Source: Serripes groenlandicus (lineage: Eukaryota; Mollusca; Bivalvia; Cardiida; Cardiidae). Taken from it: a stretch of 64,000 nt of DNA. The notes under the pieces are model-generated. The model had not been told where the DNA came from, ran no database searches, and saw only the letters and a list, made by a program, of their open reading frames with translations. Position 1 is the stretch's first letter, and each line of letters begins with the position of its first letter. Positions 15,643 to 64,000 of the stretch are shown piece after piece. Where the stretch lies: positions 70,869,717 to 70,933,716 of the forward strand of contig JASEVX010000008.1 of assembly GCA_031761405.1 (NCBI GenBank). Reading direction: 5' to 3'. Made by a program: the position numbers and the translations under genes.

Positions 15643-16775
15643 TGGTGCCAATTCATAATGTTCTATAAAAAAGAATAACTCCTACGTAGGAGATAAAAAG
15701 CCTAATTAGGAGTTTATAACTCCTACGTAGGACTTTATAACTCCTACGTAGGAGATAAAAAAAGCCTAATTAGGACTTTGTGACTCCTACATAGGAGAAA
15801 GAAAAGCCTAATTAGGGGTTTATAACTCCTACGTAGGACTTAATAATTACTAATTAGGCTTTTTTATCTCCTACGTAGGAGTTATAAAGTCCTACGTAGG
15901 AGAAAGAAAAGCCTAATTAAGAGTTTATAATTCCTACGTAGGACTTTATAACTCCTAATTAGGCTTTTTTATCTCCTACGTAGGACTTTGTAATTCCTAC
16001 GTAGGAGATACAATAGCCTAATTAGGACTTTGTAACTCCTACGTAGGAGAAAGAAAAGCCTAAGTTATAAACTCCTAATTAGGCTTTTCTTTCTCCTACG
16101 TAGGACTTTATAACTCCTACGTAGGAGATAAAAAAAAAGCCTAATAATTTTCTTTCTCCTACGTAGGAGTTACATAGTCCTAATTAGGCTATTTTATCTC
16201 CTACGTAGAAGTTATAAACTCCTAATTAGGCTTTTTTTATCTCCTACGTAGGAGTTACAAAGTCCTAATTAGGCTATTTTATCTCCTACGTAGAAGTTAT
16301 AAAGTCCTAATTAGGCATTTTTTATCTCCTACGTAGGAGTTACAAAGTCCTACGTAGGAGTTACAAAGTCCTACGTAGGACTTTATAACTCCTACGTAGG
16401 AGATACAAAAGCCTAATTAGGAGTTATAAAGTCCTACGTAGGAGTTATAAACTCCTAATTAGGCTTTTCTTTCTTCTACGTAGGAGATAAAAAAAGCCTA
16501 ATTAGGAGTTATAAAGTCCTACGTAGGAGTTATAAACTCCTGATTAGGCTTTTCTTTCTCCTACGTAGGAGTTACAAAGTCCTAATTAGGCTTTTTTATC
16601 TCCTACGTAGGAGTTATAAACTCCTAATTAGGCTTTTTTATCTCCTACGTAGGAGTTATAAAGTCCTAATTAGGCTTTTTTATCTCCTTCGTAGGAGTTA
16701 CAAAGTTCTAATTAGGCTTTTTTATCACCTACGTAGGAGTTATTCTTTTTTATAGAACATTATGAATTGGCACCA
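15643..16775. mobile_element. Inverted-repeat element filled with TACGTA/TAATTA palindromes
   Basis: The ends are a perfect 48-bp inverted repeat: 15643-15690 begins TGGTGCCAATTCATAATG, and its exact reverse complement is 16728-16775. Weaker pairing extends outward by about 15 bp. The interior alternates two self-complementary words, CTCCTACGTAGGAG and CCTAATTAGG. They are separated by short spacers, mostly GATAAAAAAG, TTTATAA, AAAGTC or their complements. Several dozen palindromes occur, some with one base changed (CTACATAGG, CTTCGTAGG). There is no coding capacity. It has the form of a MITE whose core expanded as a palindromic microsatellite. Target duplications were not identified. Confidence 0.85.
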
Positions 16776-35673: not shown

Positions 35674-35749
35674 CCAATGTAAAATGATACGATTGGTGTC
35701 CTGGTTAAACAAATACTTTTTTTTCATAGATTATCTGGCATTGTTTGAA

Positions 35750-38700
35750 TATTCTGGTGAGACTGTGGGAATGAGTCTTCGCTGTACGCAGATGAATATT
35801 CTTGTCAGACTGTGGGAATGAGTCTTCACTATACACAGATGTATATTCTTGTCAGACTGTGGGAATGAGTCTTCACTGTACACAGATGTATATTCTTGTC
35901 AGACTGTGGGAATGAGTCTTCAATGTACACAGATGTATATTCTTGTCAGATTGTGGGAATGAGTCTTCAATGTACGCAGATGTATATTCTTGTCAGACTG
36001 TGGGAATGAGTCTTCACTGTACGCAGATGAATATTCTTGTCAGACTGTGGGAATGAGTCTTCACTGTACGCAGATGTATATTCTTGTCAGACTGTGGGAA
36101 TGAGTCTTCACTGTACGCAGATGTATATTCTTGTCAGACTGTGGGAATGAGTCTTCACTGTACACAGATGTATATTCTTGTCAGACTGTGGGAATGAGTC
36201 TTCACTGTACACAGATGTATATTCTTGTCAGACTGTGGGAATGAGTCTTCACTGTACACAGATGTATATTCTTGTCAGACTGTGGGAATGAGTCTTCACT
36301 GTACACAGATGTATATTCTTGTCAGACTGTGGGAATGAGTCTTCACTGTACGCAGATGTATATTCTTGTCAGACTGTGGGAATGAGTCTTCACTGTACGC
36401 AGATGAATATTCTTGTCAGACTGTGGGAATGAGTCTTCACTGTGCACAGATGTATATTCTTGTCAGACTGTGGGAATGAGTCTTCACTGTACGCAGATGT
36501 ATATTCTTGTCAGACTATGGGAATGAGTCTTCACTGTACGCAGATGTATATTCTTGTCAGACTGTGGGAATGAGTCTTCACTGTACACAGATGAATATTC
36601 TTGTCAGACTGTGGGAATGAGTCTTCACTGTACACAGATGAATATTCTTGTCAGATTGTGGGAATGAGTCTTCACTGTACACAGATGTATATTCTTGTCA
36701 GACTGTGTGCATGAGTCTTCACTGTACGCAGATGTATATTCTTGTCAGACTGTGTGCATGAGTCTTCACTGTACGCAGATGTATATTCTTGTCAGACTGT
36801 GGGAATGAGTCTTCACTGTACGCAGATGAATATTCTTGTCAGACTGTGGGAATGAGTCTTCACTGTGCACAGATGTATATTCTTGTCAGACTGTGGGAAT
36901 GAGTCTTCACTGTACACAGATGTATATTCTTGTCAGACTGTGGGAATGAGTCTTCACTGTACGCAGATGTATATTCTTGTCAGACTGTGGGAATGAGTCT
37001 TCACTGTACGCAGATGAATATTCTTGTCAGATTGTGGGAATGAGTCTTCACTGTACACAGATGTAAATTCTTGTCAGACTGTGTGCATGAGACTTCACTG
37101 TACGCAGATGTATATTCTTGTCAGACTGTGTGCATGAGTCTTCACTGTACGCAGATGTATATTCTTGTCAGACTGTGGGAATGAGTCTTCACTGTACGCA
37201 GATGAATATTCTTGTCAGACTGTGGGAATGAGTCTTCACTGTGCACAGATGTATATTCTTGTCAGACTGTGGGAATGAGTCTTCACTGTACACAGATGTA
37301 TATTCTTGTCAGACTGTGGGAATGAGTCTTCACTGTACACAGATGTATATTCTTGTCAGACTGTGTGCATGAGTCTTCACTGTACGCAGATGAATATTCT
37401 TGTCAGACTGTGGGAATGAGTCTTCACTGTACACAGATGTATATTCTTGTCATACTGTGGGAATGAGTCTTCACTGTACACAGATGTATATTCTTGTCAG
37501 ACTGTGGGAATGAGTCTTCACTGTACATAGATGTATATTCTTGTCAGACTGTGGGAATGAGTCTTCAATGTACACAGATGTATATTCTTGTCAGATTGTG
37601 GGAATGAGTCTTCAATGTACGCAGATGTATATTCTTGTCAGACTGTGGGAATGAGTCTTCACTGTACGCAGATGAATATTCTTGTCAGACTGTGGGAATG
37701 AGTCTTCACTGTACGCAGATGTATATTCTTGTCAGACTGTGGGAATGAGTCTTCACTGTACACAGATGTATATTCTTGTCAGACTGTGGGAATGAGTCTT
37801 CACTGTACACAGATGTATATTCTTGTCAGACTGTGGGAATGAGTCTTCACTGTACACAGATGTATATTCTTGTCAGACTGTGGGAATGAGTCTTCACTGT
37901 ACACAGATGTATATTCTTGTCAGACTGTGGGAATGAGTCTTCACTGTACACAGATGTATATTCTTGTCAGACTGTGGGAATGAGTCTTCACTTTTCGCAG
38001 ATGTATATTCTTGTCAGACTGTGGGAATGAGTCTTCACTGTACGCAGATGAATATTCTTGTCAGACTGTGGGAATGAGTCTTCACTGTGCACAGATGTAT
38101 ATTCTTGTCAGACTGTGGGAATGAGTCTTCACTGTACGCAGATGTATATTCTTGTCAGACTATGGGAATGAGTCTTCACTGTACGCAGATGTATATTCTT
38201 GTCAGACTGTGGGAATGAGTCTTCACTGTACACAGATGAATATTCTTGTCAGACTGTGGGAATGAGTCTTCACTGTACACAGATGAATATTCTTGTCAGA
38301 TTGTGGGAATGAGTCTTCACTGTACACAGATGTATATTCTTGTCAGACTGTGTGCATGAGTCTTCACTGTACGCAGATGTATATTCTTGTCAGACTGTGT
38401 GCATGAGTCTTCACTGTACGCAGATGTATATTCTTGTCAGACTGTGGGAATGAGTCTTCACTGTACGCAGATGAATATTCTTGTCAGACTGTGGGAATGA
38501 GTCTTCACTGTGCACAGATGTATATTCTTGTCAGACTGTGGAAATCAGTCTTCACTGTACGCAGATGTATATTCTTGTCAGACTGTGGGAATGAGTCTTC
38601 ACTGTACGCAGATGAATATTCTTGTCAGACTGTGGGAATGAGTCTTCACTGTGCACAGATGTATATTCTTGTCAGACTGTGGGAATGAGTCTTCACTGTA

Positions 38701-39550
38701 CACAGATGTATATTCTTGTCAGACTGTGGGAATGAGTCTTCACTGTACACAGATGTATATTCTTGTCAGACTGTGTGCATGAGTCTTCACTGTACGCAGA
38801 TGTATATTCTTGTCAGACTTTGGGAATGAGTCTTCACTGTACGCAGATGAATATTCTTGTCAGACTGTGGGAATGAGTCTTCACTGTGCACAGATGTATA
38901 TTCTTGTCAGACTCTGTGCATGAGTCTTCACTGTACGCAGATGTATATTCTTGTCAGACTGTGGGAATGAGTCTTCACTGTACGCAGATGAATATTCTTG
39001 TCAGACTGTGGGAATGAGTCTTCACTGTGCACAGATGTATATTCTTGTCAGACTGTGGGAATGAGTCTTCACTGTACACAGATGTATATTCTTGTCAGAC
39101 TGTGGGAATGAGTCTTCACTGTACGCAGATGTATATTCTTGTCAGACTGTGGGAATGAGTCTTCACTGTACGCAGATGAATATTCTTGTCAGATTGTGGG
39201 AATGAGTCTTCACTGTACACAGATGTAAATTCTTGTCAGACTGTGTGCATGAGACTTCACTGTACGCAGATGTATATTCTTGTCAGACTGTGTGCATGAG
39301 TCTTCACTGTACGCAGATGAATATTCTTGTCAGACTGTGGGAATGAGTCTTCACTGTACGCAGATGTATATTCTTGTCAGACTGTGGGAATGAGTCTTCA
39401 CTGTACACAGATGTATATTCTTGTCAGACTGTGGGAATGAGTCTTCACTGTACACAGATGTATATTCTTGTCAGACTGTGGGAATGAGTCTTCACTGTAC
39501 ACAGATGTATATTCTTGTCAGACTGTGGGAATGAGTCTTCACTGTACACA
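35750..39550. repeat. Minisatellite block 1, 47-bp unit, about 80 copies
   Basis: The unit contains ATTCTTGTCAGACTGTGGG, AATGAGTCTTCACTGTAC and RCAGATGTAT. The period stays exact over long distances: the rare variant CAGACTATGG recurs at 36511 and 38156 (1,645 bp, 35 units), and GTGTGCATGAGA at 37081 and 39243 (2,162 bp, 46 units). Variants include GTGTGCATG and GTGCACAG. Since 47 is not a multiple of three, the open frames inside do not represent a repetitive protein. Confidence 0.97.
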
Positions 39551-41960
39551 GATGGGACTGTTGGTATAAGTTGTCACTGTACGCAGATGGGACTGTTGTT
39601 ATGAGTCCTCACTGTACGCAGATGGGACTGTGCGTATGAGATGTCACTGTACGCAGATGGGACTGTGCGAATGAGTTGTCACTGTACGCAGATGGGACTG
39701 TTGGTATGAGTTGTCACTGTACGCAGATGGGACTGTTGGTATGAGTTGTCACTGTACGCAGATGGGACTGTTGGTATGAGTCCTCACTGTACGCATATGG
39801 GACTGTGCGTATGAGTCCTCACTGTACGCAGATGGGACTGTGCGTATGAGTCCTCACTGTACGCAGATGGAACTGTGCGTATGAGTTGTCACTGTACGCA
39901 GATGTGACTGTTGGTATGAGTTGTCACTGTACGCAGATGTGACTGTTGGTATGAGTTGTCACTGTACGCAGATGGGACTGTATGTATGAGTCCTCACTGT
40001 ACGCAGATGGAACTGTTGGTATGAGTCCTCACTGTACGCAGATGGGACTGTTGGTATGAGTTGTCACTGTACGCAGATGTGACTGTTAGTATGAGTCCTC
40101 ACTGTACGCAGATGGGACTGTGCGTATGAGTCCTCACTGTACGCAGATGGGACTGTGCGTATGAGTCCTCACTGTATGCAGATGGGACTGTGCGTATGAG
40201 TTGTCACTGTACGCAGATGGGACTGTTGGTATGAGTCCTCACTGTACGCAGATGGGACTGTTGGTATGAGTTCTCACTGTACGCAGATGGGACTGTTGGT
40301 ATGAGTTGTCACTGTACGCTGATGGGACTGTTGGTATGAGTCCCCACTGTACGCAGATGGGACTGTGCGTATGAGTCCTCACTGTACGCAGATTGGACTG
40401 TTGGTATGAGTTGTCACTGTACGCAGATGGGACTGTTGGTATGAGTCCTCACTGTACACAGATGGGACTGTTGGTATGAGTCCTCATTGTATGCAAATGG
40501 GACTGTTGGTATGAGTTGTCACTGTAAGCAGATGGGTCTGTTGGTATGAGTTATCACTGTACGCAGATGGGACTGTTGGTATGAGTTGTCACTGTACGCA
40601 GATGGGACTGTTGGTATGAGTCCTAACTGTAAGCAGATGGGACTGTGCGTATGAGTTGTCACTGTACGCAGATGGGACTGTTGGTATGAGTTGTCACTGT
40701 ACGCAGATGGGACTGTTGGTATGAGTTGTCACTGTACGCAGATGGGACTGTGCGTATGAGTCCTAACTGTACGCAGATGGGACTGTTGGTATGAGTTGTC
40801 ACTGTACGCAGATGGGACTGTTGGTATGAGTCCTCACTGTACGTAAATGGGACTGTTGGTATGAGTTGTCACTGTACGCAGATGGGACTGTTGGTATGCG
40901 TCCACACTGTACGCAGATGGGACTGTGCGTATGAGTCCTAACTGTACGCAGATGGGACTGTAGGTATGAGTTGTCACTGTACGCAGATGAGACTGTTGGT
41001 ATGAGTGTCACTGTACGCAGATGGGACTGTGTGTATGAGTCCTCACTGTACACAGATGGGACTGGTGGTATGAGTTGTCACTGTACGAAGATTGGACTGT
41101 TGGTATGAGTCCTCACTGTACGCAGATGGCACTGTTGGTATGAGTTGTCACTGTACGCAGATGGGACTGTTGGTATGAGTCCTCACTGTACGCAGATGGG
41201 ACTGTGCGTATGAGTCCTCACTGTACGCAGATGGGACTGTTGGTACGAGTTGTCAATGCACACAGATGGGACTGTTGGTATGAGTTGTCACTGTACGCAG
41301 ATGGGACTGTTGGTATGAGTTGTCACTGTACGCAGATGGGACTGTGCGTATGAGTTGTCACTGTACGCAGGTGGGACTGATGGTATGAGTTGTCACTGTA
41401 CGCAGATGGGACTGTTGGTATGACTCCTCAATGTACGCAGATGGGACTGTTGGTATGAGTCCTCACTGTACGCAGATGGGAATGTTGGTATGAGTCCTCA
41501 CTATATGCAAATGGGACTGTTGGTATGAGTTGTCACTGTACGCAGATGGGACTGTTGGTATGAGTCCTCACTGTACGCAGATGGGACTGTTGGTATGAGT
41601 CCTCACTGTACACAGATGGGACTGTTGGTATGAGTCCTCACTGTACGCAGATGGGACTGTTGGTATGAGTTGTCACTGTACGCAGATGGGACTGTGCGTA
41701 TGAGTCCTAACTGTACGCAGATGGGACTGTTGGTATGAGTTGTCACTGTACGCAGATGGGACTGTTGGTATGAGTTATCACTGTACGCAGATGGGACTGT
41801 GCGTATGAGTCTTCACTGTACGCATATGTATACTCTGGTGAGACAGTTGGAATGAGTTGTCACTGTACGCAGATGGGACTGTGCGTATGAGTCCTAACTG
41901 AACGCAGATGGGACTGTTGGTATGAGTCCTCACTGTACGCAGATGGGACTGTTGGTATGA
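39551..41960. repeat. Minisatellite block 2, 35-bp unit, about 68 copies
   Basis: The unit contains GGGACTGTTGGTATGAG, TTGTCACTGTACGCAGAT, or variants with GTGCGTATGAGTCCTC. It equals the 47-bp unit of block 1 with TATATTCTTGTCA reduced to a single G, a 12-bp difference. From about 41820 single 47-bp-type units are mixed in. Confidence 0.95.
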
Positions 41961-42780
41961 GTCCTCACTGTACGCATATGTATACTTTGGTGAGACAGTT
42001 GGAGTGAGTTGTCACTGTACGCATATGTATACTCTGGTGAGACAGTTGGAGTGAGTTGTCACTGTACGCATATGTATACTCTGGTGAGACAGTTGGAGTG
42101 AGTTGTCACTGTACGCATATGTATACTTTGGTGAGACAGTTGGACAGAGTTGTCACTGTACGCAGATGTATACTCTGGTGAGACAGTTGGAGTGAGTTGT
42201 CACTGTACGCAGATGTATACTCTGGTGAGACAGTTAGAGTGAGTTGTCACTGTACGCAGATGTATACTCTGGTGAGACAGTTAGAGTGAGTTGTCACTGT
42301 ACGCAGATGTATACTCTGGTGAGACAGTTGGAGTGAGTTGTCACTGTACGCAGATTGGACTGTGGTGAGACAGTTGGAATGAGTTGTCGCTGTACGCATA
42401 TGTATACTCTGGTGAGACAGTTGGAATGAGTTGGCACTGTACGCATATGTATACTCTGGTGATATTGTGAGAATGGGTCTTCACTGTAAACAGATGAGAT
42501 GTATACTCTGGTGGTATTGTCGGCATGTGTCTTCACTGTACGCAGATGATATGTATACTCTGGTGATATTATGGGCATGTGTCTTCACTGTACGCAGATG
42601 AGATGTATACTCTGGTGATATTATGGGCATGTGTCTTCACTGTACGCAGATGTATACTCTGATAGGACTGTGGGAATGAGTTGTCACTGTATGCAGATGA
42701 ATACTCTGGTGATATTGTGGGAATGAAATTTCATTGCTCACAGATGAATATTCTGATGAGATTGTAGGTACAAGTCTTCA
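41961..42780. repeat. Minisatellite block 3, mixed units of about 47-50 bp
   Basis: Units combine GTATACTCTGGTGAGACAG, TTGGAGTGAGTTGTCACTG and TACGCATAT/TACGCAGATG. The second half (42450-42780) is more irregular, with GATATTGTGGGAATG and GGGCATGTGTCTTC variants. It is transitional between blocks 2 and 4. Confidence 0.9.
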
Positions 42781-44270
42781 CTGTACGCAGATGTATACTC
42801 TGGTGAGTGCAGATGTATACACTCTGGTGAGTGCAGATGTATACTCTGGTGAGTGCAGATGTATACACTCTGGTGAGACTGTGGGTATACGAGTCTACGT
42901 GGCACGCAGATGTATACTCCGGAGAGTGCATATGTATACACTCTGGTGAGTGCAGATGTATACTCTGGTGAGTGCAGATGTATACTCCGGTGAGACTGTG
43001 GGTTTACGAGTCTACGTGGCACGCAGATGTATACTCTGGTGAGACTGTGGGTTTACGAGTCTACGTGGCACGCAGATGTATACTCTGGTGATACTGTGGG
43101 TATACAAGTCTACGTGGCATGCAGATGTATACTCTGGTGAGACTGTGGGTTTACGAGTCTACGTGGCACGCATATGTATACTCTGGTGAGACTGTGGGTA
43201 TACGAGTCTACGTGGCACGCAGATGTGTACTCTGGTGAGACTGTGGGTATACGAGTCTACGTGGCACGCAGACGAATACTCTGGTGAGACTGTGGGTATA
43301 CGAGTCTACGTGGCACGCATATGTATACTCTGGTGAGACTGTGGGTATACGAGTCTACGTGGCACGCAGACGTATACTCTGGTGAGACTTTGGGTATACG
43401 AGTCTACGTGGCACGCAGATGTATACTCTGGTGAGACTGTGGGTATACGAGTCTACGTGGCACGCATATGTATACTCTGGTGAGACTGTGGGTATACGAG
43501 TCTACGTGGCACGTGGACGTATACTCTAGTGAGACTGTGGGTTTACGAGTCTACGTGGCACGCAGATGTATACTCTGGTGAGACCGTGGGTTTACGAGTC
43601 TACGTGGCACGCATATGTATACTCTGGTGAGATTGTGGGTAAACGAGTCTACGTGGCACGCAGACGTATACTCTAGTGAGATTGTGGGTTTACGAGTCTA
43701 CGTGGCACGCAGATGTGTACTCTGGTGAGACTGTGGGTATACGAGTCTACGTGGCACGCAGATGTATACTCTGGTGAGAATGTGGGTATACGAGTCTACG
43801 TGGCACGCAGATGTACACTCTGGTGAGACTGTGGGTATACGAGTCTACGTGGCACGCAGATGTATACTCTGGTGAGACTGTGGGTATACGAGTCTACGTG
43901 GCACGCAGATGTATACTCTGGTGAGACTGTGGGTATACGAGTCTACGTGGCACGCAGATGTATACTCTGGTGAGACTGTGGGTAAACGAGTCTACGTGGC
44001 ACACAGATGTATACTCCGGTGAGACTGTGGGTTTACGAGTCTACGTGGCACGCAGATGTATACTCTGGTGAGACTGTGGGTTTACGAGTCTACCTGGCAC
44101 GCAGACGTATACTCTGGTGAGTGCAGATGTATACTCTGGTGAGACTGTGGGTTTACGAGTCTACGTGGCACGCAGATGTATACTCTGGTGAGACTGTGGG
44201 TAAACGAGTCTACGTGGCACACAGATGTATACTCTGGGGGAGATTTATGGAATGAGTTGTCACTGTACGC
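42781..44270. repeat. Minisatellite block 4, 49-bp unit, about 28 copies
   Basis: The unit contains TACTCTGGTGAGACTGTGGG, TATACGAGTCTACGTGGCAC and GCAGATGTA, with a 49-bp period in the regular part (for example 43806 and 43855). Short 22- to 24-bp units GTGAGTGCAGATGTATAC occur near 42795-42990 and 44117. It ends with a block-3-like unit at 44235-44270. Confidence 0.95.
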
Positions 44271-44289
44271 AGATTTATTAAGAATTTAA

Positions 44290-44395
44290 GACACTCAATC
44301 GCTACACGCGGACAATATAACATCAGCGACTAAGGTCGATTAACTCAATCGCTACACGCGGACAATATAACATCAGCGACTATGGCCAATTAACT
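44290..44395. repeat. Two-copy tandem repeat, 50 bp
   Basis: AATCGCTACACGCGGACAAT followed by ATAACATCAGCGACTA occurs at 44297 and 44347 with few changes. It lies at the edge of the minisatellite chain but is unrelated in sequence. Confidence 0.8.
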
Positions 44396-44445
44396 TCAAT
44401 TTACTTCTTACCTGTCTGAAAAAGAAATGCTTAGAGCTTAGATAT

Positions 44446-54110: not shown

Positions 54111-54764
54111 TTAAGGTGGCAGGGGACACATTCGTATTTGGCCCCTGTCGATATTTCATATATTTGGAGTGTTTGAAAATGAATTGATTTTTTAACTATA
54201 TAACAACATTTGGCATTGATTTCTTTATTGACATCTATCAATTGATGCATACAAAATGTGGAGAAAATACGAAAATGTGTATATGCTAGCTCATATCATG
54301 TTGAATAGCTTTTCAAGGGGAGGTCATTCTCAACATAATTTCCGAAGCTGTTGTGGAATGAAAATTCAGGTATTTCAAATAAGATTTTCTACTAGAAGAA
54401 TACTGATGACATGGTATTTTGTATACATTTCCTGGTTATGCATTGCTTGATTATTAAGTACGTGTGCTTCAATTTTCTCCTGCATGTTTCCAGAAAGTAA
54501 GGACATGATTAGAAAATATGCCGAAATAGTGTCATTTTAGCCCGTATTTTGGGTAGGTGGGCTAGAATACACAGGGTCTGGGAAAAAAATCAGTACTGTT
54601 GAGTTGCTAAAATGTTACCTGATTTTGAAATACTGTTATATGCCATATATTGAGATATAGTTTTAACATTATGATGGATGTTGTCTCTGAGAATTTCTCA
54701 AATAACATTTATCGGTGCGGACCTGCTGAAATGTTGCAAATTTAGGGGTCCCCTGCCACCTTAA
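54111..54764. mobile_element. Element A, copy 1: 654-bp TTAA-flanked element
   Basis: TTAA at 54111-54114 is followed by GGTGGCAGGGGAC, whose perfect inverted copy GTCCCCTGCCACC lies at 54748-54760 before TTAA at 54761-54764. TTAA targets are used by the piggyBac and Kolobok superfamilies. The ends start GG rather than CCC, which fits Kolobok-type ends better. It encodes nothing convincing (a 64-codon frame at 54256-54450 at most), so it is non-autonomous. It directly abuts module B, sharing the TTAA. Confidence 0.85.
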
Positions 54765-55145
54765 GGGGAAAATTCTCAACTTTGAAATGCCTGGAAGATA
54801 AACTTTTCATGTTTTAACATGTTTCTTTATTTATATGGCAAACAACATGTACAAACTGAGCTACCTGTGCATTGAATTTGCACCTGATATACACAAATAG
54901 GCAAGGGAGGTAGTAATATAATAAAAAAGCTGAAAATTACGGTAAAGAGTAATTCATACTTCATTGTTTTTTTTTTCATAAAATAACAATGTTTTGGTAT
55001 ACAACAAACTTATTTACAACATTTTCCACAAACATTTATCAAAATATTCATTTAATGGATCCATTGTGTTAAAAGTCGGTTATGTTTATGCTTAATTATC
55101 GTGAAATACATCAATATTTTGTTTCTTTCTCTTATTTCAAGTATA

Positions 55146-55523
55146 ATGGCTGCAATTTTCAAAACTTATGATATTACAAATGAAGAAAGAGGCTTCTTAA
55201 GCTCTGCTATCAATAAACGAACTAAGTTCGTGGAAAACTGCAAAATTTGGACAGGTCTGTGCACCTCAGATGGATACGGTTTACTCCGAATACAGTTTCG
55301 GGGTAAACGTATCAAAGTGAAAGTACACCGAATGGTATTCTTTCTGTCAAATTCACATGGGCTTACTCCACGGATGCATGTGTCCCATATTTGCCATAAT
55401 AGGTTATGTCTGTCCCTTAATCACCTTTCATACGAGCCACAGCGTGTAAATAATAGCCGGTTGAGGTGTAAAAATGAAAGCGAATGTTGCGGCCATTATG
55501 CATTTGCTAGGTGCCTACTGTAA
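55146..55523 (+). CDS. I-PpoI-like His-Me finger (HNH) nuclease, copy 1
   Basis: The 125-aa protein has the residue spacing of the I-PpoI homing endonuclease fold. H81 (in HVSHIC) is the expected general base. N102 lies 21 residues later, as His98 and Asn119 do in I-PpoI. C83, C88 and H93 match one zinc site (with C32 or C39 as fourth ligand). C108, C115 and H117 match the second, with C123 two residues later than in I-PpoI. Such enzymes cut double-stranded DNA. The ATG (TATAATGG context) lies five bases after TCTCTTATTTCAAG, a possible splice acceptor; an in-frame GTG 45 bp upstream is not a likely eukaryotic start. It converges on the transposase gene 186 bp away. Role unknown: transposition cofactor or homing passenger. 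Confidence 0.85.
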   Translation: MAAIFKTYDITNEERGFLSSAINKRTKFVENCKIWTGLCTSDGYGLLRIQFRGKRIKVKVHRMVFFLSNSHGLTPRMHVSHICHNRLCLSLNHLSYEPQRVNNSRLRCKNESECCGHYAFARCLL

Positions 55524-55625
55524 GGTATGATAACACTGTTCGGTATAGTTCTGGTTCTCTTCAAACTGTTACGCTACATTTTTGCTTCCGTTCGTTTTCC
55601 TTTTCTGAAATTCAACACTTTGCGT

Positions 55626-55687
55626 GAACAGTGTAGACTGAGATCAGCATGTGCGGATGTACATGCTGATCTTTGCCTACACTGTTC
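55626..55687. other. DNA hairpin between the convergent genes, copy 1
   Basis: Outer arms GAACAGTGTAG and CTACACTGTTC (11 bp) enclose inner arms AGATCAGCATGT and ACATGCTGATCT (12 bp). Both convergent transcripts would carry it in their 3' regions. Similar GAACAGT...GATCAG hairpins are dispersed in bivalve DNA, as I recall, so it may be an older mini-element rather than a purpose-built terminator. Confidence 0.8.
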
Positions 55688-55709
55688 AAAAATGCCAACT
55701 GTATAATTA

Positions 55710-57650
55710 TTACCCTAAATTAATACCATAAGAGTGATCTGCACTTGCAACAGTTGTTGATTTGTATAGAGATTGTTTGAAAAGTTCTCTATTTGCAATT
55801 CGACGTCGTTTCGAGTATCTCGTACTTTTGTATTGAAAGGATCGTTTTCGGTTTGCATGGTACATTGAGATTTTCTCACAGTTTTTAGCATATTTGTAAA
55901 TTGGATCATTCACACCTACTTCTAAGCCAACATGTTGTGCGATAAGAAGCAGAGATATCCCTCTGCCTATGCTTGCGCCAAGCGAAGCAGCATGACACAG
56001 GCCCGGGAAATTTCTGCTCCATACCGTACTTTTTGGTGCAATTGAAAACAGTCTTGAGTGTAAATTTTCACACTTGTTTGTGTTGAATAAATTTTCAGTC
56101 TCTTTCAGCTGTTTCGCACCACAGTATTGTGAAATGACTTTAGAAATTATTTCTCTGTCTTTCGTTGACAGTTTCATGTACTGGCCATATGGTAGATATG
56201 TCATTTTGTAAGTTTTAAGGTGAGAAATGCATACTGCTGACACCTTTCTGCAATTAGAATGGTTTCCGTGGAAACAGTCCAGTACGTTTGTTATGGCGTT
56301 TTCCGCACGGCTGTGATAATGGTCCCTGGATTTGGCGGTGACCCTCAAGCGGCTTAGTTCCATACGTATCCTATCTCGCAGTCTGGAAGCAAGAATTCTT
56401 GTATACTCCTTTCTGTTCTTTCCTGGAGGGGCTTTGATATTGGCTGCCCTGAGATGTTTGTGGAAGTTGCGCATGTTGTGGATGAAGCATTTGTAGTGAT
56501 TTATATGCTTCTGGCGGTTGCTGTTTAGAGTCCGCATGGCTTTTGCGAGTGATTGGCTGCCATCAGTTGTAATGGACTGTACATTGAGAATGTTTTTGCT
56601 CTCTATATTTTTAATGGTTGCTTTAAGGAATGAGGTTTCAGCCTCATTTATGGTGTGATCACTACTGTAATTCTTCTTACATTTTCTACTCAAATGGTTA
56701 CACAATTTTAAAGGACACAACTTGTTTCCAATTTGAATGTCTACCGGCAACTGTTTTAAAGTTGTTTTTTCCACTGTAGGTGCAAAACACTGAGTGGCAG
56801 TTATACCGCCTGCCTGTGGCCGACTGGTGTAGGACACATCATATTCCAAGTGAGTTCCATCTGTTCTTCCTGCAAGATTCTCAACTTGTTTGACATAGTT
56901 CTGATTCTTCTCTAACTGGAGCGTATTAATTTTTTCAACTTCATCTGTGAGGGAGTTGAACTTTCTTTGCAGTCCTCGCTTGTCTGGTGCTTGAATATTT
57001 AAGCAGGCTAGCATAAGCTGAACGTCACTTATCCCCAATTTTGAACCGAGGACTGGCAGAACAAGGCAGTTGTTCAGGATCCCTGTGGTTTGTCCCTGTT
57101 TCTTAACACTATGAAACAGTGGCAGTTCATGCGAAACAAAGTTGCAATTCTGGCTTTTCAATTGTAGTGTTATGCAAAGGCCTTTCCGGTCAAGCACACT
57201 CAGTTTCAGAATTGCGTTGTCACAGTTATGTCCGTTAAGGCTATTAAATGCATTTTCAAGCATTTGCAGATTGACAATGGCATTTTCATTTCTGACTGAT
57301 GTACTGTCACTGACTTTTGATGAAAAATTTGTATTCTCTACAGTTGATGTTGATGTTGATGGTCTCAGCTTAAATGGTACAGTTGGTCCAGACTTTAAAC
57401 CACTAGCATGAAGTACGTCTTGTGCAACTGATGTGTGAAGTCTCCTTAGTGAAGAAGTTACATCCTCAGCCTCAGTCGGTATATGTGAATATTCATCAGA
57501 AAGTCCAGGAATACTGTCAGATTCAGCACAAGTGTCACTAAAACTACTCCACCTTTTCAAAGCATAGGTATTTCCCTTTTTAAAATATGTATATTTCCTC
57601 TTTTTATTAAGCCTGTAGCTGTGTTTATAATTCCTTTTAATATCTCTCAT
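55710..57650 (-). CDS. DDE transposase of animal Mutator-like/Kolobok-like type, copy 1 (full length)
   Basis: 646 codons from the ATG at 57650. A GTG two codons upstream is not a likely start; numbering here counts that GTG as 1. The N terminus is strongly basic (RLNKKRKYTYFKKGN), likely nuclear targeting and DNA binding. The core fits the DDE transposases labelled Mutator-like in animal genomes: D273 in EYDVSYTSRP, D365 in SITTDGSQS, a C390-x2-H393 motif in HYKCFIHNMRNFHKHLR, and E530 in NTNKCENLHSRLFSIAPK. The last corresponds to NESFNN.VW...PK in relatives. The C-x2-H motif between the second and third acids is shared by MULE, hAT, P and Kolobok groups. A basic tail (RKRSFQ..STRYSKRRRIANREL) follows. 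It would cut and rejoin DNA ends in the nucleus. TTAA borders favour Kolobok-type target choice, which is inference. Confidence 0.85.
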   Translation of the reverse strand: MRDIKRNYKHSYRLNKKRKYTYFKKGNTYALKRWSSFSDTCAESDSIPGLSDEYSHIPTEAEDVTSSLRRLHTSVAQDVLHASGLKSGPTVPFKLRPSTSTSTVENTNFSSKVSDSTSVRNENAIVNLQMLENAFNSLNGHNCDNAILKLSVLDRKGLCITLQLKSQNCNFVSHELPLFHSVKKQGQTTGILNNCLVLPVLGSKLGISDVQLMLACLNIQAPDKRGLQRKFNSLTDEVEKINTLQLEKNQNYVKQVENLAGRTDGTHLEYDVSYTSRPQAGGITATQCFAPTVEKTTLKQLPVDIQIGNKLCPLKLCNHLSRKCKKNYSSDHTINEAETSFLKATIKNIESKNILNVQSITTDGSQSLAKAMRTLNSNRQKHINHYKCFIHNMRNFHKHLRAANIKAPPGKNRKEYTRILASRLRDRIRMELSRLRVTAKSRDHYHSRAENAITNVLDCFHGNHSNCRKVSAVCISHLKTYKMTYLPYGQYMKLSTKDREIISKVISQYCGAKQLKETENLFNTNKCENLHSRLFSIAPKSTVWSRNFPGLCHAASLGASIGRGISLLLIAQHVGLEVGVNDPIYKYAKNCEKISMYHANRKRSFQYKSTRYSKRRRIANRELFKQSLYKSTTVASADHSYGINLG

Positions 57651-58357
57651 GTTCACTAGTTGTAAGCAATACTAATTCTAGAAAACAATGGGTTGGACTG
57701 CATGTTTTATCATGAAATGGATTCTTATCAGGGATGTAGGGTCATATTTCAGGTGTCTGGGTATTTGTGTTTGCAATTAAAACTATTTGGATACAGCTAG
57801 TTTGTGTGAGTAAGGCTTTGGGGTTTACCTCCCTTACATCTACAGACTGAAAAGAGTGATGCTTGTGACAGGTATTTTGCTGTAGTTCCATTTCTGGGAT
57901 ATATTTTGAATTGAGATAACAATGGGATTTTTACTGTTATTATGTCATACAGTAGTTGTTGAGACCAGTTTCTATTAATGCTTTTAAAAACTTCTAAGAT
58001 AAGTACTTAAATGATATAAACTTTAAGCAAATTTATGATATTGATAATTTCTAAGGTTTCAAATCTGGTTTCCTAAGTAAATTGAAGAAATTAAAGCATA
58101 TTTAGGTCTAATATGGTTATAAATATTGACAACATGCATTGCATTCATAAGAAAACTAGGGTTTTACATGCTGGATATTTTCATGCATTTTGGCTATATT
58201 TGGATTATTTCCCTTGTATTGGGTTACTTTTTAGAAAAGGGTCATATTGCTAAAAGAAACACAGTTTTCTTTCTTTTTTTTTCTTTATTGTGTGTAAAAT
58301 ACATTAAATTATAAAATCACAGATGCACTAGTTATAGTTAAGCTGAAAATAAAAACT
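57651..58357. promoter_or_regulatory. Upstream region of the transposase gene within module B
   Basis: About 700 bp without coding capacity (a 62-codon plus-strand frame at 58126-58314 begins with TTG and is not credible). It should hold the minus-strand promoter of the transposase and the right end of the module. No clear TATA or terminal repeat was identified. Confidence 0.35.
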
Positions 58358-58742
58358 TTAAGGGGAAAATTCTCAACTTTGAAATGCCTGGAAGATAAAC
58401 TTTTCATGTTTTAACATGTTTCTTTATTTATATGGCAAACAACATGTACAAACTGAGCTACCTGTGCATTGAATTTGCACCTGATATACACAAATAGGCA
58501 AGGGAGGTAGTAATATAATAAAAAAGCTGAAAATTACGGTAAAGAGTAATTCATACTTCATTGGTTTTTTTTTCATAAAATAACAATGTTTTGGTATACA
58601 ACAAACTTATTTACAACATTTTCCACAAACATTTATCAAAATATTCATTTAATGGATCCATTGTGTTAAAAGTCGGTTATGTTTATGCTTAATTATCGTG
58701 AAATACATCAATATTTTGTTTCTTTCTCTTATTTCAAGTATA

Positions 58743-59120
58743 ATGGCTGCAATTTTCAAAACTTATGATATTACAAATGAAGAAAGAGGCTTCTTAAGCT
58801 CTGCTATCAATAAACGAACTAAGTTCGTGGAAAACTGCAAAATTTGGACAGGTCTGTGCACCTCAGATGGATACGGTTTACTCCGAATACAGTTTCGGGG
58901 TAAACGTATCAAAGTGAAAGTACACCGAATGGTATTCTTTCTGTCAAATTCACATGGGCTTACTCCACGGATGCATGTGTCCCATATTTGCCATAATAGG
59001 TTATGTCTGTCCCTTAATCACCTTTCATACGAGCCACAGCGTGTAAATAATAGCCGGTTGAGGTGTAAAAATGAAAGCGAATGTTGCGGCCATTATGCAT
59101 TTGCTAGGTGCCTACTGTAA
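58743..59120 (+). CDS. I-PpoI-like His-Me finger (HNH) nuclease, copy 2
   Basis: The 125-aa product is identical to that of copy 1, with all zinc ligands (C83, C88, H93, C108, C115, H117), H81 and N102 kept. Its intactness next to a broken transposase means the nuclease can survive independently of its partner. The same possible splice acceptor lies five bases before the ATG. Confidence 0.85.
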   Translation: MAAIFKTYDITNEERGFLSSAINKRTKFVENCKIWTGLCTSDGYGLLRIQFRGKRIKVKVHRMVFFLSNSHGLTPRMHVSHICHNRLCLSLNHLSYEPQRVNNSRLRCKNESECCGHYAFARCLL

Positions 59121-59222
59121 GGTATGATAACACTGTTCGGTATAGTTCTGGTTCTCTTCAAACTGTTACGCTACATTTTTGCTTCCGTTCGTTTTCCTTT
59201 TCTGAAATTCAACACTTTGCGT

Positions 59223-59284
59223 GAACAGTGTAGACTGAGATCAGCATGTGCGGATGTACATGCTGATCTTTGCCTACACTGTTC
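59223..59284. other. DNA hairpin between the convergent genes, copy 2
   Basis: The same two pairs of arms as at 55626-55687 (GAACAGTGTAG/CTACACTGTTC and AGATCAGCATGT/ACATGCTGATCT), unchanged. Confidence 0.8.
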
Positions 59285-59306
59285 AAAAATGCCAACTGTA
59301 TAATTA

Positions 59307-60307
59307 TTACCCTAAATTAATACCATAAGAGTGATCTGCACTTGCAACAGTTGTTGATTTGTATAGAGATTGTTTGAAAAGTTCTCTATTTGCAATTCGA
59401 CGTCGTTTCGAGTATCTCGTACTTTTGTATTGAAAGGATCGTTTTCGGTTTGCATGGTACATTGAGATTTTCTCACAGTTTTTAGCATATTTGTAAATTG
59501 GATCATTCACACCTACTTCTAAGCCAACATGTTGTGCGATAAGAAGCAGAGATATCCCTCTGCCTATGCTTGCGCCAAGCGAAGCAGCATGACACAGGCC
59601 CGGGAAATTTCTGCTCCATACCGTACTTTTTGGTGCAATTGAAAACAGTCTTGAGTGTAAATTTTCACACTTGTTTGTGTTGAATTTATCCCCAATTTTG
59701 AACCGAGGACTGGCAGAACAAGGCAGTTGTTCAGGATCCCTGTGGTTTGTCCCTGTTTCTTAACACTATGAAACAGTGGCAGTTCATGCGAAACAAAGTT
59801 GCAATTCTGGCTTTTCAATTGTAGTGTTATGCAAAGGCCTTTCCGGTCAAGCACACTCAGTTTCAGAATTGCGTTGTCACAGTTATGTCCGTTAAGGCTA
59901 TTAAATGCATTTTCAAGCATTTGCAGATTGACAATGGCATTTTCATTTCTGACTGATGTACTGTCACTGACTTTTGATGAAAAATTTGTATTCTCTACAG
60001 TTGATGTTGATGTTGATGGTCTCAGCTTAAATGGTACAGTTGGTCCAGACTTTAAACCACTAGCATGAAGTACGTCTTGTGCAACTGATGTGTGAAGTCT
60101 CCTTAGTGAAGAAGTTACATCCTCAGCCTCAGTCGGTATATGTGAATATTCATCAGAAGGTCCAGGAATACTGTCAGATTCAGCACAAGTGTCACTAAAA
60201 CTACTCCACCTTTTCAAAGCATAGGTATTTCCCTTTTTAAAATATGTATATTTCCTCTTTTTATTAAGCCTGTAGCTGTGTTTATAATTCCTTTTAATAT
60301 CTCTCAT
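59307..60307 (-). pseudogene. DDE transposase, copy 2, 940-bp internal deletion and frameshift
   Basis: The first 209 codons (GTG-based numbering) are kept with one visible change (L52P). The deletion then removes residues 210-522, including D273, D365 and C390/H393, and shifts the frame. Translation would add about 40 unrelated residues (from NSTQTSVKIY) and stop at 59564. The E530 region and the basic tail remain in the DNA but out of frame. A truncated protein with the N-terminal basic domain could still bind DNA and compete with the intact enzyme; that is speculation. Confidence 0.9.
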
Positions 60308-61010
60308 GTTCACTAGTTGTAAGCAATACTAATTCTAGAAAACAATGGGTTGGACTGCATGTTTTATCATGAAATGGATTCTTATCAGGGATGTAGGGTC
60401 ATATTTCAGGTGTCTGGGTATTTGTGTTTGCAATTAAAACTATTTGGATACAGCTAGTTTGTGTGAGTAAGGCTTTGGGGTTTACCTCCCTTACATCTAC
60501 AGACTGAAAAGAGTGATGCTTGTGACAGGTATTTTGCTGTAGTTCCATTTCTGGGATATATTTTGAATTGAGATAACAATGGGATTTTTACTGTTATTAT
60601 GTCATACAGTAGTTGTTGAGACCAGTTTCTATTAATGCTTAAACTTCTAAGATAAGTACTTAAATGATATAAACTTTAAGCAAATTTATGATATTGATAA
60701 TTTCTAAGGTTTCAAATCTGGTTTCCTAAGTAAATTGAAGAAATTAAAGCATATTTAGGTCTAATATGGTTATAAATATTGACAACATGCATTGCATTCA
60801 TAAGAAAACTAGGGTTTTACATGCTGGATATTTTCATGCATTTTGGCTATATTTGGATTATTTCCCTTGTATTGGGTTACTTTTTAGAAAAGGGTCATAT
60901 TGCTAAAAGAAACACAGTTTTCTTTCTTTTTTTTTCTTTATTGTGTGTAAAATACATTAAATTATAAAATCACAGATGCACTAGTTATAGTTAAGCTGAA
61001 AATAAAAACT

Positions 61011-61664
61011 TTAAGGTGGCAGGGGACACATTCGTATTTGGCCCCTGTCGATATTTCATATATTTGGAGTGTTTGAAAATGAATTGATTTTTTAACTATA
61101 TAACAACATTTGGCATTGATTTCTTTATTGACATCTATCAATTGATGCATACAAAATGTGGAGAAAATACGAAAATGTGTATATGCTAGCTCATATCATG
61201 TTGAATAGCTTTTCAAGGGGAGGTCATTCTCAACATAATTTCCGAAGCTGTTGTGGAATGAAAATTCAGGTATTTCAAATAAGATTTTCTACTAGAAGAA
61301 TACTGATGACATGGTATTTTGTATACATTTCCTGGTTATGCATTGCTTGATTATTAAGTACGTGTGCTTCAATTTTCTCCTGCATGTTTCCAGAAAGTAA
61401 GGACATGATTAGAAAATATGCCGAAATAGTGTCATTTTAGCCCGTATTTTGGGTAGGTGGGCTAGAATACACAGGGTCTGGGAAAAAAATCAGTACTGTT
61501 GAGTTGCTAAAATGTTACCTGATTTTGAAATACTGTTATATGCCATATATTGAGATATAGTTTTAACATTATGATGGATGTTGTCTCTGAGAATTTCTCA
61601 AATAACATTTATCGGTGCGGACCTGCTGAAATGTTGCAAATTTAGGGGTCCCCTGCCACCTTAA
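61011..61664. mobile_element. Element A, copy 2: 654-bp TTAA-flanked element
   Basis: Matches 54111-54764 at a 6,900-bp offset, with the same GGTGGCAGGGGAC ends and TTAA on both sides. It lies between module B' and the third module. The sequence before it differs from that before copy 1 (module B' end against unique DNA), which fixes the left border of A at TTAA. Confidence 0.88.
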
Positions 61665-62045
61665 GGGGAAAATTCTCAACTTTGAAATGCCTGGAAGATA
61701 AACTTTTCATGTTTTAACATGTTTCTTTATTTATATGGCAAACAACATGTACAAACTGAGCTACCTGTGCATTGAATTTGCACCTGATATACACAAATAG
61801 GCAAGGGAGGTAGTACTATAATAAAAAAGCTGAAAATTACGGTAAAGAGTAATTCATACTTCATTGTTTTTTTTTTCATAAAATAACAATGTTTTGGTAT
61901 ACAACAAACTTATTTACAACATTTTCCACAAACATTTATCAAAATATTCATTTAATGGATCCATTGTGTTAAAAGTCGGTTATGTTTATGCTTAATTATC
62001 GTGAAATACATCAATATTTTGTTTCTTTCTCTTATTTCAAGTATA

Positions 62046-62423
62046 ATGGCTGCAATTTTCAAAACTTATGATATTACAAATGAAGAAAGAGGCTTCTTAA
62101 GCTCTGCTATCAATAAACGAACTAAGTTCGTGGAAAACTGCAAAATTTGGACAGGTCTGTGCACCTCAGATGGATACGGTTTACTCCGAATACAGTTTCG
62201 GGGTAAACGTATCAAGGTGAAAGTACACCGAATGGTATTCTTTCTGTCAAATTCACATGGGCTTACTCCACGGATGCATGTGTCCCATATTTGCCATAAT
62301 AGGTTATGTCTGTCCCTTAATCACCTTTCATACGAGCCACAGCGTGTAAATAATAGCCGGTTGAGGTGTAAAAATGAAAGCGAATGTTGCGGCCATTATG
62401 CATTTGCTAGGTGCCTACTGTAA
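62046..62423 (+). CDS. I-PpoI-like His-Me finger (HNH) nuclease, copy 3
   Basis: The protein is identical to copies 1 and 2. The only base change seen in the gene (62216) is a silent AAA to AAG lysine codon. A silent change among so few differences is compatible with selection on the protein but proves nothing alone. Confidence 0.85.
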   Translation: MAAIFKTYDITNEERGFLSSAINKRTKFVENCKIWTGLCTSDGYGLLRIQFRGKRIKVKVHRMVFFLSNSHGLTPRMHVSHICHNRLCLSLNHLSYEPQRVNNSRLRCKNESECCGHYAFARCLL

Positions 62424-62525
62424 GGTATGATAACACTGTTCGGTATAGTTCTGGTTCTCTTCAAACTGTTACGCTACATTTTTGCTTCCGTTCGTTTTCC
62501 TTTTCTGAAATTCAACACTTTGCGT

Positions 62526-62587
62526 GAACAGTGTAGACTGAGATCAGCATGTGCGGATGTACATGCTGATCTTTGCCTACACTGTTC
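62526..62587. other. DNA hairpin between the convergent genes, copy 3
   Basis: Same hairpin as at 55626-55687, unchanged in sequence and position relative to both genes. Confidence 0.8.
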
Positions 62588-62609
62588 AAAAATGCCAACT
62601 GTATAATTA

Positions 62610-64000
62610 TTACCCTAAATTAATACCATAAGAGTGATCTGCACTTGCAACAGTTGTTGATTTGTATAGAGATTGTTTGAAAAGTTCTCTATTTGCAATT
62701 CGACGTCGTTTCGAGTATCTCGTACTTTTGTATTGAAAGGATCGTTTTCGGTTTGCATGGTACATTGAGATTTTCTCACAGTTTTTAGCATATTTGTAAA
62801 TTGGATCATTCACACCTACTTCTAAGCCAACATGTTGTGCGATAAGAAGCAGAGATATCCCTCTGCCTATGCTTGCGCCAAGCGAAGCAGCATGACACAG
62901 GCCCGGGAAATTTCTGCTCCATACCGTACTTTTTGGTGCAATTGAAAACAGTCTTGAGTGTAAATTTTCACACTTGTTTGTGTTGAATAAATTTTCAGTC
63001 TCTTTCAGCTGTTTCGCACCACAGTATTGTGAAATGACTTTAGAAATTATTTCTCTGTCTTTCGTTGACAGTTTCATGTACTGGCCATATGGTAGATATG
63101 TCATTTTGTAAGTTTTAAGGTGAGAAATGCATACTGCTGACACCTTTCTGCAATTAGAATGGTTTCCGTGGAAACAGTCCAGTACGTTTGTTATGGCGTT
63201 TTCCGCACGGCTGTGATAATGGTCCCTGGATTTGGCGGTGACCCTCAAGCGGCTTAGTTCCATACGTATCCTATCTCGCAGTCTGGAAGCAAGAATTCTT
63301 GTATACTCCTTTCTGTTCTTTCCTGGAGGGGCTTTGATATTGGCTGCCCTGAGATGTTTGTGGAAGTTGCGCATGTTGTGGATGAAGCATTTGTAGTGAT
63401 TTATATGCTTCTGGCGGTTGCTGTTAAGAGTCCGCATGGCTTTTGCGAGTGATTGGCTGCCATCAGTTGTAATGGACTGTACATTGAGAATGTTTTTGCT
63501 CTCTATATTTTTAATGGTTGCTTTAAGGAATGAGGTTTCAGCCTCATTTATGGTGTGATCACTACTGTAATTCTTCTTACATTTTCTACTCAAATGGTTA
63601 CACAATTTTAAAGGACACAACTTGTTTCCAATTTGAATGTCTACCGGCAACTGTTTTAAAGTTGTTTTTTCCACTGTAGGTGCAAAACACTGAGTGGCAG
63701 TTATACCGCCTGCCTGTGGCCGACTGGTGTAGGACACATCATATTCCAAGTGAGTTCCATCTGTTCTTCCTGCAAGATTCTCAACTTGTTTGACATAGTT
63801 CTGATTCTTCTCTAACTGGAGCGTATTCATTTTTTCAACTTCATCTGTGAGGGAGTTGAACTTTCTTTGCAGTCCTCGCTTGTCTGGTGCTTGAATATTT
63901 AAGCAGGCTAGCATAAGCTGAACGTCACTTATCCCCAATTTTGAACCGAGGACTGGCAGAACAAGGCAGTTGTTCAGGATCCCTGTGGTTTGTCCCTGTT
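62610..64000 (-). CDS. DDE transposase, copy 3, N terminus beyond the window
   Basis: The open frame continues through the window edge. It holds the equivalents of D273, D365, C390/H393 and E530 and the basic tail, all matching copy 1, with one conservative change (I243M). The apparent start at 63938 is an internal TTG and not a real start; by comparison with copy 1 the ATG should lie about 550 bp beyond the window. No damage is visible in the part seen. Confidence 0.85.
   Translation of the reverse strand, partial: QGQTTGILNNCLVLPVLGSKLGISDVQLMLACLNIQAPDKRGLQRKFNSLTDEVEKMNTLQLEKNQNYVKQVENLAGRTDGTHLEYDVSYTSRPQAGGITATQCFAPTVEKTTLKQLPVDIQIGNKLCPLKLCNHLSRKCKKNYSSDHTINEAETSFLKATIKNIESKNILNVQSITTDGSQSLAKAMRTLNSNRQKHINHYKCFIHNMRNFHKHLRAANIKAPPGKNRKEYTRILASRLRDRIRMELSRLRVTAKSRDHYHSRAENAITNVLDCFHGNHSNCRKVSAVCISHLKTYKMTYLPYGQYMKLSTKDREIISKVISQYCGAKQLKETENLFNTNKCENLHSRLFSIAPKSTVWSRNFPGLCHAASLGASIGRGISLLLIAQHVGLEVGVNDPIYKYAKNCEKISMYHANRKRSFQYKSTRYSKRRRIANRELFKQSLYKSTTVASADHSYGINLG

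What the first reader, a model, noticed from the sequence alone, without database searches (positions are those of the whole stretch)
54761..64000. TTAA-bounded module pairing an I-PpoI-like HNH nuclease with a Mutator/Kolobok-like DDE transposase
Seen directly: three nearly identical head-to-tail copies carry the same two convergent genes, a 125-aa His-Me finger nuclease and a 646-aa transposase with a D-D-E plus C-x2-H layout. A second, separate DNA-cutting enzyme is not a standard part of the animal DDE transposons I know. The nuclease could help generate or repair ends, promote homing-like spread, or be a passenger. I cannot check whether this pairing has been described.
Basis: partly seen in the sequence, partly recalled or inferred. 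Interest (0 to 1): 0.88.

Follow-up and report, generated by a model that had tools for sequence, protein, structure and literature searches.

The report
KolobokP transposon array with homing nuclease
This is a tandem array of a jumping gene that carries both a transposase and a homing-type DNA-cutting enzyme; the pairing is real and looks maintained by selection, but it was already described in 2022 as the KolobokP lineage of animal transposons.

Summary
The pairing is real but already published. The window holds part of a KolobokP element (Kojima & Bao 2022, PMC9587614): a Kolobok-type DNA transposon whose internal region (INT) encodes a DDE transposase and a convergent I-PpoI-like His-Me nuclease, flanked by long terminal direct repeats (LTDRs) with their own short inverted repeats. 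The real ends are 646-bp LTDRs (54115-54760, 61015-61660); the full array is LTDR-INT-INT-LTDR-INT-INT-LTDR. Copy 2 has a 940-bp transposase deletion; copies 1, 3 and 4 are full length. 46 of 61 merged transposase copies have a convergent nuclease within 1.5 kb; a divergent family (about 26% transposase identity) has the pair too. dN/dS is below 1 for both genes against the nearest family. 6 of 12 arrays of three or more units carry only disrupted nuclease copies (4 of these 6 read in DNA), so array growth need not use the nuclease in cis; the paper's multimers of non-autonomous families point the same way. LTDR-LTDR abutments occur at 4 places.

The parts
54111..54114 (.). TTAA abutting the outer side of LTDR1 (left flank of the array)
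   Evidence: sequence
54115..54760 (+). LTDR1, left long terminal direct repeat, 646 bp, 5'-GG...CC-3'
   Evidence: identical to LTDR2; 40 scored matches of 475 candidates in the genome
54115..54127 (+). 13-bp terminal inverted repeat, left, of LTDR1
54748..54760 (-). 13-bp terminal inverted repeat, right, of LTDR1
54761..58361 (.). INT1, internal region, complete; shares TTAA 58358-58361 with INT2
55146..55523 (+). His-Me finger (I-PpoI-like, His-Cys box) nuclease, 125 aa, INT1
   Evidence: PF05551 E 6.5e-10; S80 H81 C83 C88 H93 E97 N102 C108 invariant in 4 aligned sequences, offset 17 from I-PpoI
55625..55688 (.). near-palindrome between the two convergent genes; role unknown
   Evidence: (55600-55710 folded as DNA, z -7.4)
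55710..57650 (-). DDE transposase, 646 aa, complete (D271, CCHC 312-324, D363, CFIH 388-391, zinc finger 459-474, E528; roles assigned by motif)
58358..58361 (.). single TTAA at the INT1-INT2 joint, no LTDR
58358..61014 (.). INT2, with a 940-bp deletion in the transposase gene (joint 59685/59686)
58743..59120 (+). nuclease, 125 aa, INT2
59564..60307 (-). remaining 247-aa open frame of the deleted transposase, INT2
61015..61660 (+). LTDR2, identical to LTDR1
61661..64000 (.). INT3, runs past the window end; the array continues with INT4 and LTDR3 to genome C1518:70939214
62046..62423 (+). nuclease, 125 aa, INT3
62610..64000 (-). transposase, INT3, cut by the window end; full length in the genome

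Best explanation
The locus is a multimeric KolobokP transposon in an unnamed animal genome. Shown here: LTDR-INT units, paired convergent genes with dN/dS below 1, LTDR-less INT-INT joints with one TTAA, LTDRs that look solo, and arrays of up to 13 nuclease copies. Inferred: the transposase acts on the inverted repeats of the LTDRs and can move either a solo LTDR or LTDR-INT-LTDR, leaving a single TTAA where an LTDR has left. Arrays then grow and shrink by recombination between the direct repeats. The nuclease is kept because it makes double-strand breaks that favour the element, most likely in or beside LTDRs; since arrays also consist of units whose own nuclease is broken, it acts in trans or is not needed for that step. 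Confidence is for the identity; the role given to the nuclease I hold at about 0.35.
For: Architecture and gene order match the published description: LTDRs of 646 bp here and about 460 bp in a divergent family, the two published size classes; CCHC after the first D, C-x2-H and a second zinc finger; convergent nuclease; INT-INT joints that lack 3-4 bases; LTDR matches without a nuclease row nearby. Selection: transposase dN/dS 0.17 (bootstrap 0.10-0.27), nuclease 0.34 (0.15-0.72) between the window family and C1341. Local array growth: 0 substitutions among 4 units of C113 and among 3 units of C446, against 1 to 3 between C113, C446 and C1301, over about 2.2 kb.
Against: No cleavage or transposition was tested. 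Units 1, 3 and 4 of the window array differ by 4 substitutions each, as much as or more than from C113 (2 to 4), so recent local duplication alone does not explain that array. 15 of 61 merged transposase copies lack a detected convergent nuclease; 13 of these are truncated or carry stops, one lies at a contig start, one has a nuclease 1.8 kb away. The nuclease comparison with the already broken B copy gives about the same dN/dS (0.35), and three of the other nuclease comparisons with some divergence did not exclude 1, so selection on the nuclease rests on few pairs. The model of the nuclease had pLDDT 37 and was not used. I-PpoI itself is only a weak sequence match (E 0.077 and 0.023). No tree against published KolobokP families was made.
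Confidence: 0.85

Rival explanations
1. The nuclease itself drives multimerisation: it cuts inside an LTDR and repair from the wrong LTDR adds a unit (induced unequal crossover, the model of Kojima and Bao).
For: Proposed in PMC9587614. In 6 of 12 arrays of three or more units every nuclease copy is stop-free over the matched part, up to 13 copies.
Against: In the other 6 of 12 arrays every copy has a stop in the matched part: the copies read from C954, C1330 and C14 share a stop, and the three C680 units read share a frameshift, as if amplified after the break. The paper itself reports multimers of non-autonomous families (Table 3). Supply in trans is not excluded.
Confidence: 0.3
2. The nuclease is a passenger homing gene that was captured once and is carried along without a role.
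For: One intact nuclease (L044) has no credible transposase in the 9.9 kb read (best tblastn match E 2e-4 over 65 residues). Selfish behaviour is usual for homing genes (general knowledge).
Against: Linkage and convergent order hold from family A to the divergent family H, and dN/dS against C1341 is 0.34 with a bootstrap range below 1.
Confidence: 0.15
3. Chance linkage at one locus, or an assembly artefact that repeats one locus.
For: Units are nearly identical, and such arrays are hard to assemble (general knowledge).
Against: The pair recurs on many contigs and in families as far apart as 26% transposase identity; units of the window array differ by a 940-bp deletion and by substitutions.
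Confidence: 0.03

Closest known systems
KolobokP (Kojima & Bao 2022, Mobile DNA 13:24, PMC9587614; parts 1-5 of 6 read)
   Same: LTDR-INT-LTDR architecture, short inverted repeats in each LTDR starting RR and ending YY, DDE transposase with CCHC and C/DxxH, downstream I-PpoI-like nuclease on the other strand, multimers (also of non-autonomous families), INT-INT joints with one 4-bp motif, solo LTDRs, LTDRs of about 450 or 660 bp.
   Different: Not met in the parts read: directly abutted LTDRs in the genome, an array with 13 nuclease copies, and arrays whose units keep an open transposase but a frameshifted nuclease. Whether this exact family is among the 228 listed could not be checked (supplements not readable).
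[quoted passage not shown]
   Same: Catalytic and His/Cys positions at a constant offset of 17 (S80, H81, C83, C88, H93, E97, N102, C108).
   Different: Shorter (125 against 163 aa in the PDB chain), encoded in a DNA transposon, not an intron; target unknown.
Other Kolobok lineages (Kol0, KolobokE, KolobokH, KolobokD), as described in PMC9587614
   Same: DDE transposase of the same superfamily; accessory protein.
   Different: Other accessory proteins and, according to the paper, no LTDRs.

Membership tests
KolobokP | Two long terminal direct repeats, about 450 or 660 bp, flanking an internal region | tested here: met
   646 bp, identical pair; single copies C2, C1301, C125 with a pair each; about 460 bp in family H
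KolobokP | Short inverted repeats (11-18 bp) inside each LTDR, 5'-RR and YY-3' | tested here: met
   13 bp perfect, GG...CC
KolobokP | DDE transposase with C/DxxH, CCHC after the first D and a zinc finger before E | tested here: met
   D271, C312 C317 H319 C324, D363, C388 H391, C459 H464 C467 C474 invariant in 16 aligned sequences; Pfam PF20700; catalytic roles by motif, not assay
KolobokP | I-PpoI-like His-Me nuclease downstream on the complementary strand | tested here: met
KolobokP | Target duplication of 3-5 bp at the outer ends | tested here: inconclusive
   TAA/TAA at L035 and L040; no clean duplication at L037 or at the window array
KolobokP | Transposase falls in the KolobokP clade of the published tree | not tested
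   published alignments are in supplements that could not be read; no tree was built
I-PpoI-type His-Cys box homing endonuclease | Catalytic His and Asn and the zinc-binding His/Cys residues | tested here: met
   H81, N102 and C32, C83, C88, H93, C108, C114, H117, C123 invariant in 4 of 4 aligned sequences; offset to I-PpoI; grouping into two zinc sites by layout, recalled
I-PpoI-type His-Cys box homing endonuclease | Sequence-specific double-strand cleavage leaving a 4-base 3' overhang | not testable with these tools
   needs an assay

The most novel reading that the evidence does not exclude
The nuclease's own target is the joint where two LTDR ends meet across TTAA (a circle joint or an abutted LTDR pair): a 30-bp perfect palindrome in this family that matches the I-PpoI site at 11 of 15 positions and would be cut across TTAA. 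The enzyme would then open circles or abutted LTDRs and so decide whether solo LTDRs or whole elements move.
Probability: 0.1. Interest if true: 0.65.

Novelty: already known. Interest (0 to 1): 0.27.

Why it matters
As a discovery it is ordinary: the pairing has a name and a paper. What could matter is that the role of the nuclease is left open in that paper (its model 'waits for experimental validation'), and this genome offers arrays with open and with broken nuclease copies, plus abutted LTDRs, so the role could be tested directly.

Tried and rejected
Solved-structure search with the nuclease alone ranked TAL effectors first; these are sums of many sub-threshold repeat matches and were rejected. 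Caspase and ribosomal matches of the transposase (E 0.016 and weaker) were rejected. Searches of viral contigs and genome contigs gave no relatives. The structure model had mean pLDDT 37, so no fold search was run. The I-PpoI-site idea stays weak: the modelled joint of two LTDR ends scores 11 of 15, but 5 of 525 TTAA sites in the window reach 11 too, two of them by my reading the LTDR-INT joints, which score 11, and family H starts GGTCAA. The near-palindrome between the genes was considered as the nuclease site and set aside: it is in the L031, L035 and L037 gaps, L036 has a different weaker one, and the gaps of L040, L046 and L049 gave nothing comparable. dN/dS within family D was too shallow in two comparisons (1 synonymous change each); L040-L047 (0.60, bootstrap 0.39-1.00), L040-L048 (0.89, 0.44-2.16) and C1341-B (0.49, 0.22-1.25) do not exclude 1; L040-L044 and A-D (0.22 each) are near saturation; A-B, with B broken, gives 0.35 (0.17-0.75). 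Left unused: one protein search, one structure job, all fold searches.
Full report
WHAT IS THERE. The window (genome place C1518:70869717-70933716) carries three near-identical units, each with a 125-aa nuclease on the + strand and transposase sequence on the - strand. The nuclease matches Pfam zf-His_Me_endon (PF05551, E 6.5e-10) and the transposase Pfam Mutator (PF20700, E 8.2e-32). Aligned internal regions are 99.8-99.9% identical apart from a 940-bp deletion in copy 2. Only copy 1 has the complete transposase inside the window; copy 3 is cut by the window end and is full length in the genome, as is copy 4 beyond it.

REAL ENDS. The TTAA joins are internal. Two identical 646-bp direct repeats, 54115-54760 and 61015-61660, each with 13-bp perfect inverted repeats (GGTGGCAGGGGAC), flank internal regions. 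The fourth unit and a third repeat lie just outside the window. The order is LTDR1-INT1-INT2-LTDR2-INT3-INT4-LTDR3. The INT1-INT2 and INT3-INT4 joints have one TTAA and no LTDR. Outer target duplications are TAA at L035 and L040, not clean at L037 or at the window array.

KNOWN NAME. Full-text searches for Kolobok with transposon and HNH, and for Kolobok with TTAA, endonuclease and transposase, returned Kojima and Bao 2022; 'KolobokP' occurs in one held paper. I read parts 1 to 5 of 6 of its text. [quoted passage not shown] Supplements were not readable, so whether this exact family is listed is unknown. The host species was not identified here.

PROTEINS. In 16 aligned transposases (window plus 15 of the 16 homologues found; the near-identical fragment P0005 was left out) D271, the CCHC set C312, C317, H319, C324, D363, C388-x2-H391 and the second zinc finger C459, H464, C467, C474 are invariant. 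The last E (E528, counted by hand) is present in the 13 rows that reach it; three rows stop before (read). In 4 aligned nucleases S80, H81, C83, C88, H93, E97, N102 and C108 are invariant; the match to I-PpoI puts them at a constant offset of 17, on S97, H98, C100, C105, H110, E114, N119, C125. S97, H98, H110, E114 and N119 are named in the paper; the other numbers follow from the offset. By sequence alone I-PpoI is a weak match (E 0.077 single, 0.023 profile).

IS THE PAIR A UNIT? The nuclease query gave 150 matches, scored out of 413 candidates, and the transposase 81 rows from 68 scored of 1014 candidates; both lists are capped. I merged the 81 rows into 61 gene copies; 46 have a convergent nuclease within 1.5 kb, using 94 of the 150 nuclease rows. 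Of the 15 without, C1010:11 starts at a contig edge, C1518:75126335 has a nuclease 1.8 kb away, and 13 are truncated or carry stops. Among 20 loci fetched because of nuclease hits (two belong to the window array), 19 show a convergent pair, in L037 with a partial transposase and in L048 with 2.1 kb between the genes; L044 has an intact nuclease and no credible transposase. The pair holds in family H, at about 26% transposase and 35% nuclease identity.

SELECTION. Between the window family and C1341, dN/dS is 0.34 (bootstrap 0.15-0.72) for the nuclease and 0.17 (0.10-0.27) for the transposase. Other nuclease comparisons in the same call: two within family D too close to judge; L040-L047, L040-L048 and C1341-B do not exclude 1; L040-L044 and A-D near saturation, 0.22 each; A-B 0.35 although the B copy is broken. 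So the transposase result is firm, the nuclease result rests on few pairs.

ARRAYS AND THE NUCLEASE. Twelve arrays have three or more nuclease copies (from rows). In six (C113, C1518, C446, C1185, C1, C1074) every copy is stop-free over its matched part (3 to 13 copies); in six (C954, C1330, C14, C757, C680, C1010) every copy has a stop there (3 to 9 copies). For four of these six I read DNA: one copy each of C954, C1330 and C14 share a stop at codon 15 with the C58 copy, and the three C680 units in L046 share a frameshift, while 7 of the 8 C680 transposase rows are open. C757 and C1010 rest on the stop counts. The simplest reading is that disrupted units were amplified, so a nuclease in cis is not needed for array growth; help in trans from intact copies is not excluded. 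Unit spacing switches between two values in C680 (about 3501 and 4157) and C1074 (about 3713 and 4175), which fits absence or presence of one LTDR (joints read).

LOCAL GROWTH. Over about 2.2 kb, 4 units of C113 show no substitutions among themselves, and 3 units of C446 none; C113, C446 and C1301 differ by 1 to 3. Units 1, 3 and 4 of the window array differ by 4 each, and by 2 to 4 from C113, so this array may have a mixed history (unit 2 cannot be judged there because its deletion spoils the alignment).

LTDR MOBILITY. Of 40 scored LTDR matches (475 candidates), 14 have the top score and 100% identity, at four places, C1518, C1301, C446 and C113, a sign of recent movement. Others, such as C1:25360228 and C557:554395, have no nuclease row nearby and look like solo LTDRs; their surroundings were not read. 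Two LTDR ends facing each other across 4 to 9 bases were found at 4 places (C1:166379072, C1132:14780, 34118, 34771), against 0 for the pattern read backwards (exact matches, spacer 0-12). The DNA around them could not be fetched.

HOW IT MAY WORK. Shown: architecture, linkage, dN/dS, array forms, LTDRs apart from genes. Inferred: the transposase acts at the LTDR inverted repeats; recombination between direct repeats makes and trims arrays; the nuclease gives an advantage through breaks at or near LTDRs. The bold version, that the LTDR-TTAA-LTDR joint is the nuclease site, rests on an 11 of 15 match to the I-PpoI site (site from one passage of PMC6294500; match). It is weak: 5 of 525 TTAA sites in the window reach the same score, and the LTDR-INT joints score 11 as well. 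The paper already suggests abutted inverted repeats on a circle as a possible target; the joint itself in the genome, and the match to the I-PpoI site, are what is added here.

VERDICT. A correct observation of a real two-gene module, with wrong borders, of an already published transposon lineage. Interest rests on the tests of the nuclease's role that this genome allows.

Noticed in passing
55625-55688 (also 59222-59285, 62525-62588): Strong near-palindrome between the 3' ends of the two convergent genes (55600-55710 as DNA: z -7.4); the C2 copy (L035) has further TGAACAGTGTA / TACACTGTTC stretches in the same gap. Nothing comparable in the gaps of L040 (D), L046 (E) and L049 (H).
   Followed up: partly
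G000:C1132:14780, 34118, 34771 and C1:166379072: Directly abutted LTDR ends with a TTAA, TTAATTTAA (twice) or TTTTAA spacer; two on C1132 lie 653 bases apart, as in an LTDR-only tandem.
   Followed up: partly
L044 (G000:C557:2307000-2316900), 4775-5221: An intact 148-aa relative of the nuclease with no credible transposase in the 9.9 kb read; a possible stand-alone or captured copy.
   Followed up: partly
G000: C224:25492785, C963:410280, C1407:38116963, C1518:4661222, C1629:38689081, C852:142928643, C113:33652706, C1629:19198463: A recurring 48-residue piece of the nuclease (residues 78-125, 90-92% identity) at separate places, perhaps a short non-autonomous derivative.
   Followed up: no
L032, 5550-5575: The INT4-LTDR3 joint reads TTAATTAA, four bases more than the INT2-LTDR2 joint.
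   Followed up: no
window 35749-44400: Long runs of related tandem repeats (47-, 35- and 49-base units among others, about 8.6 kb).
   Followed up: no
window 15675-16742: Tandem array built on palindromic CTCCTACGTAGGAG and CCTAATTAGG stretches.
   Followed up: no
protein P0015: A related transposase is filed under a Candidatus Thiodiazotropha assembly (clam symbiont, recalled); probably animal DNA in the bin.
   Followed up: no
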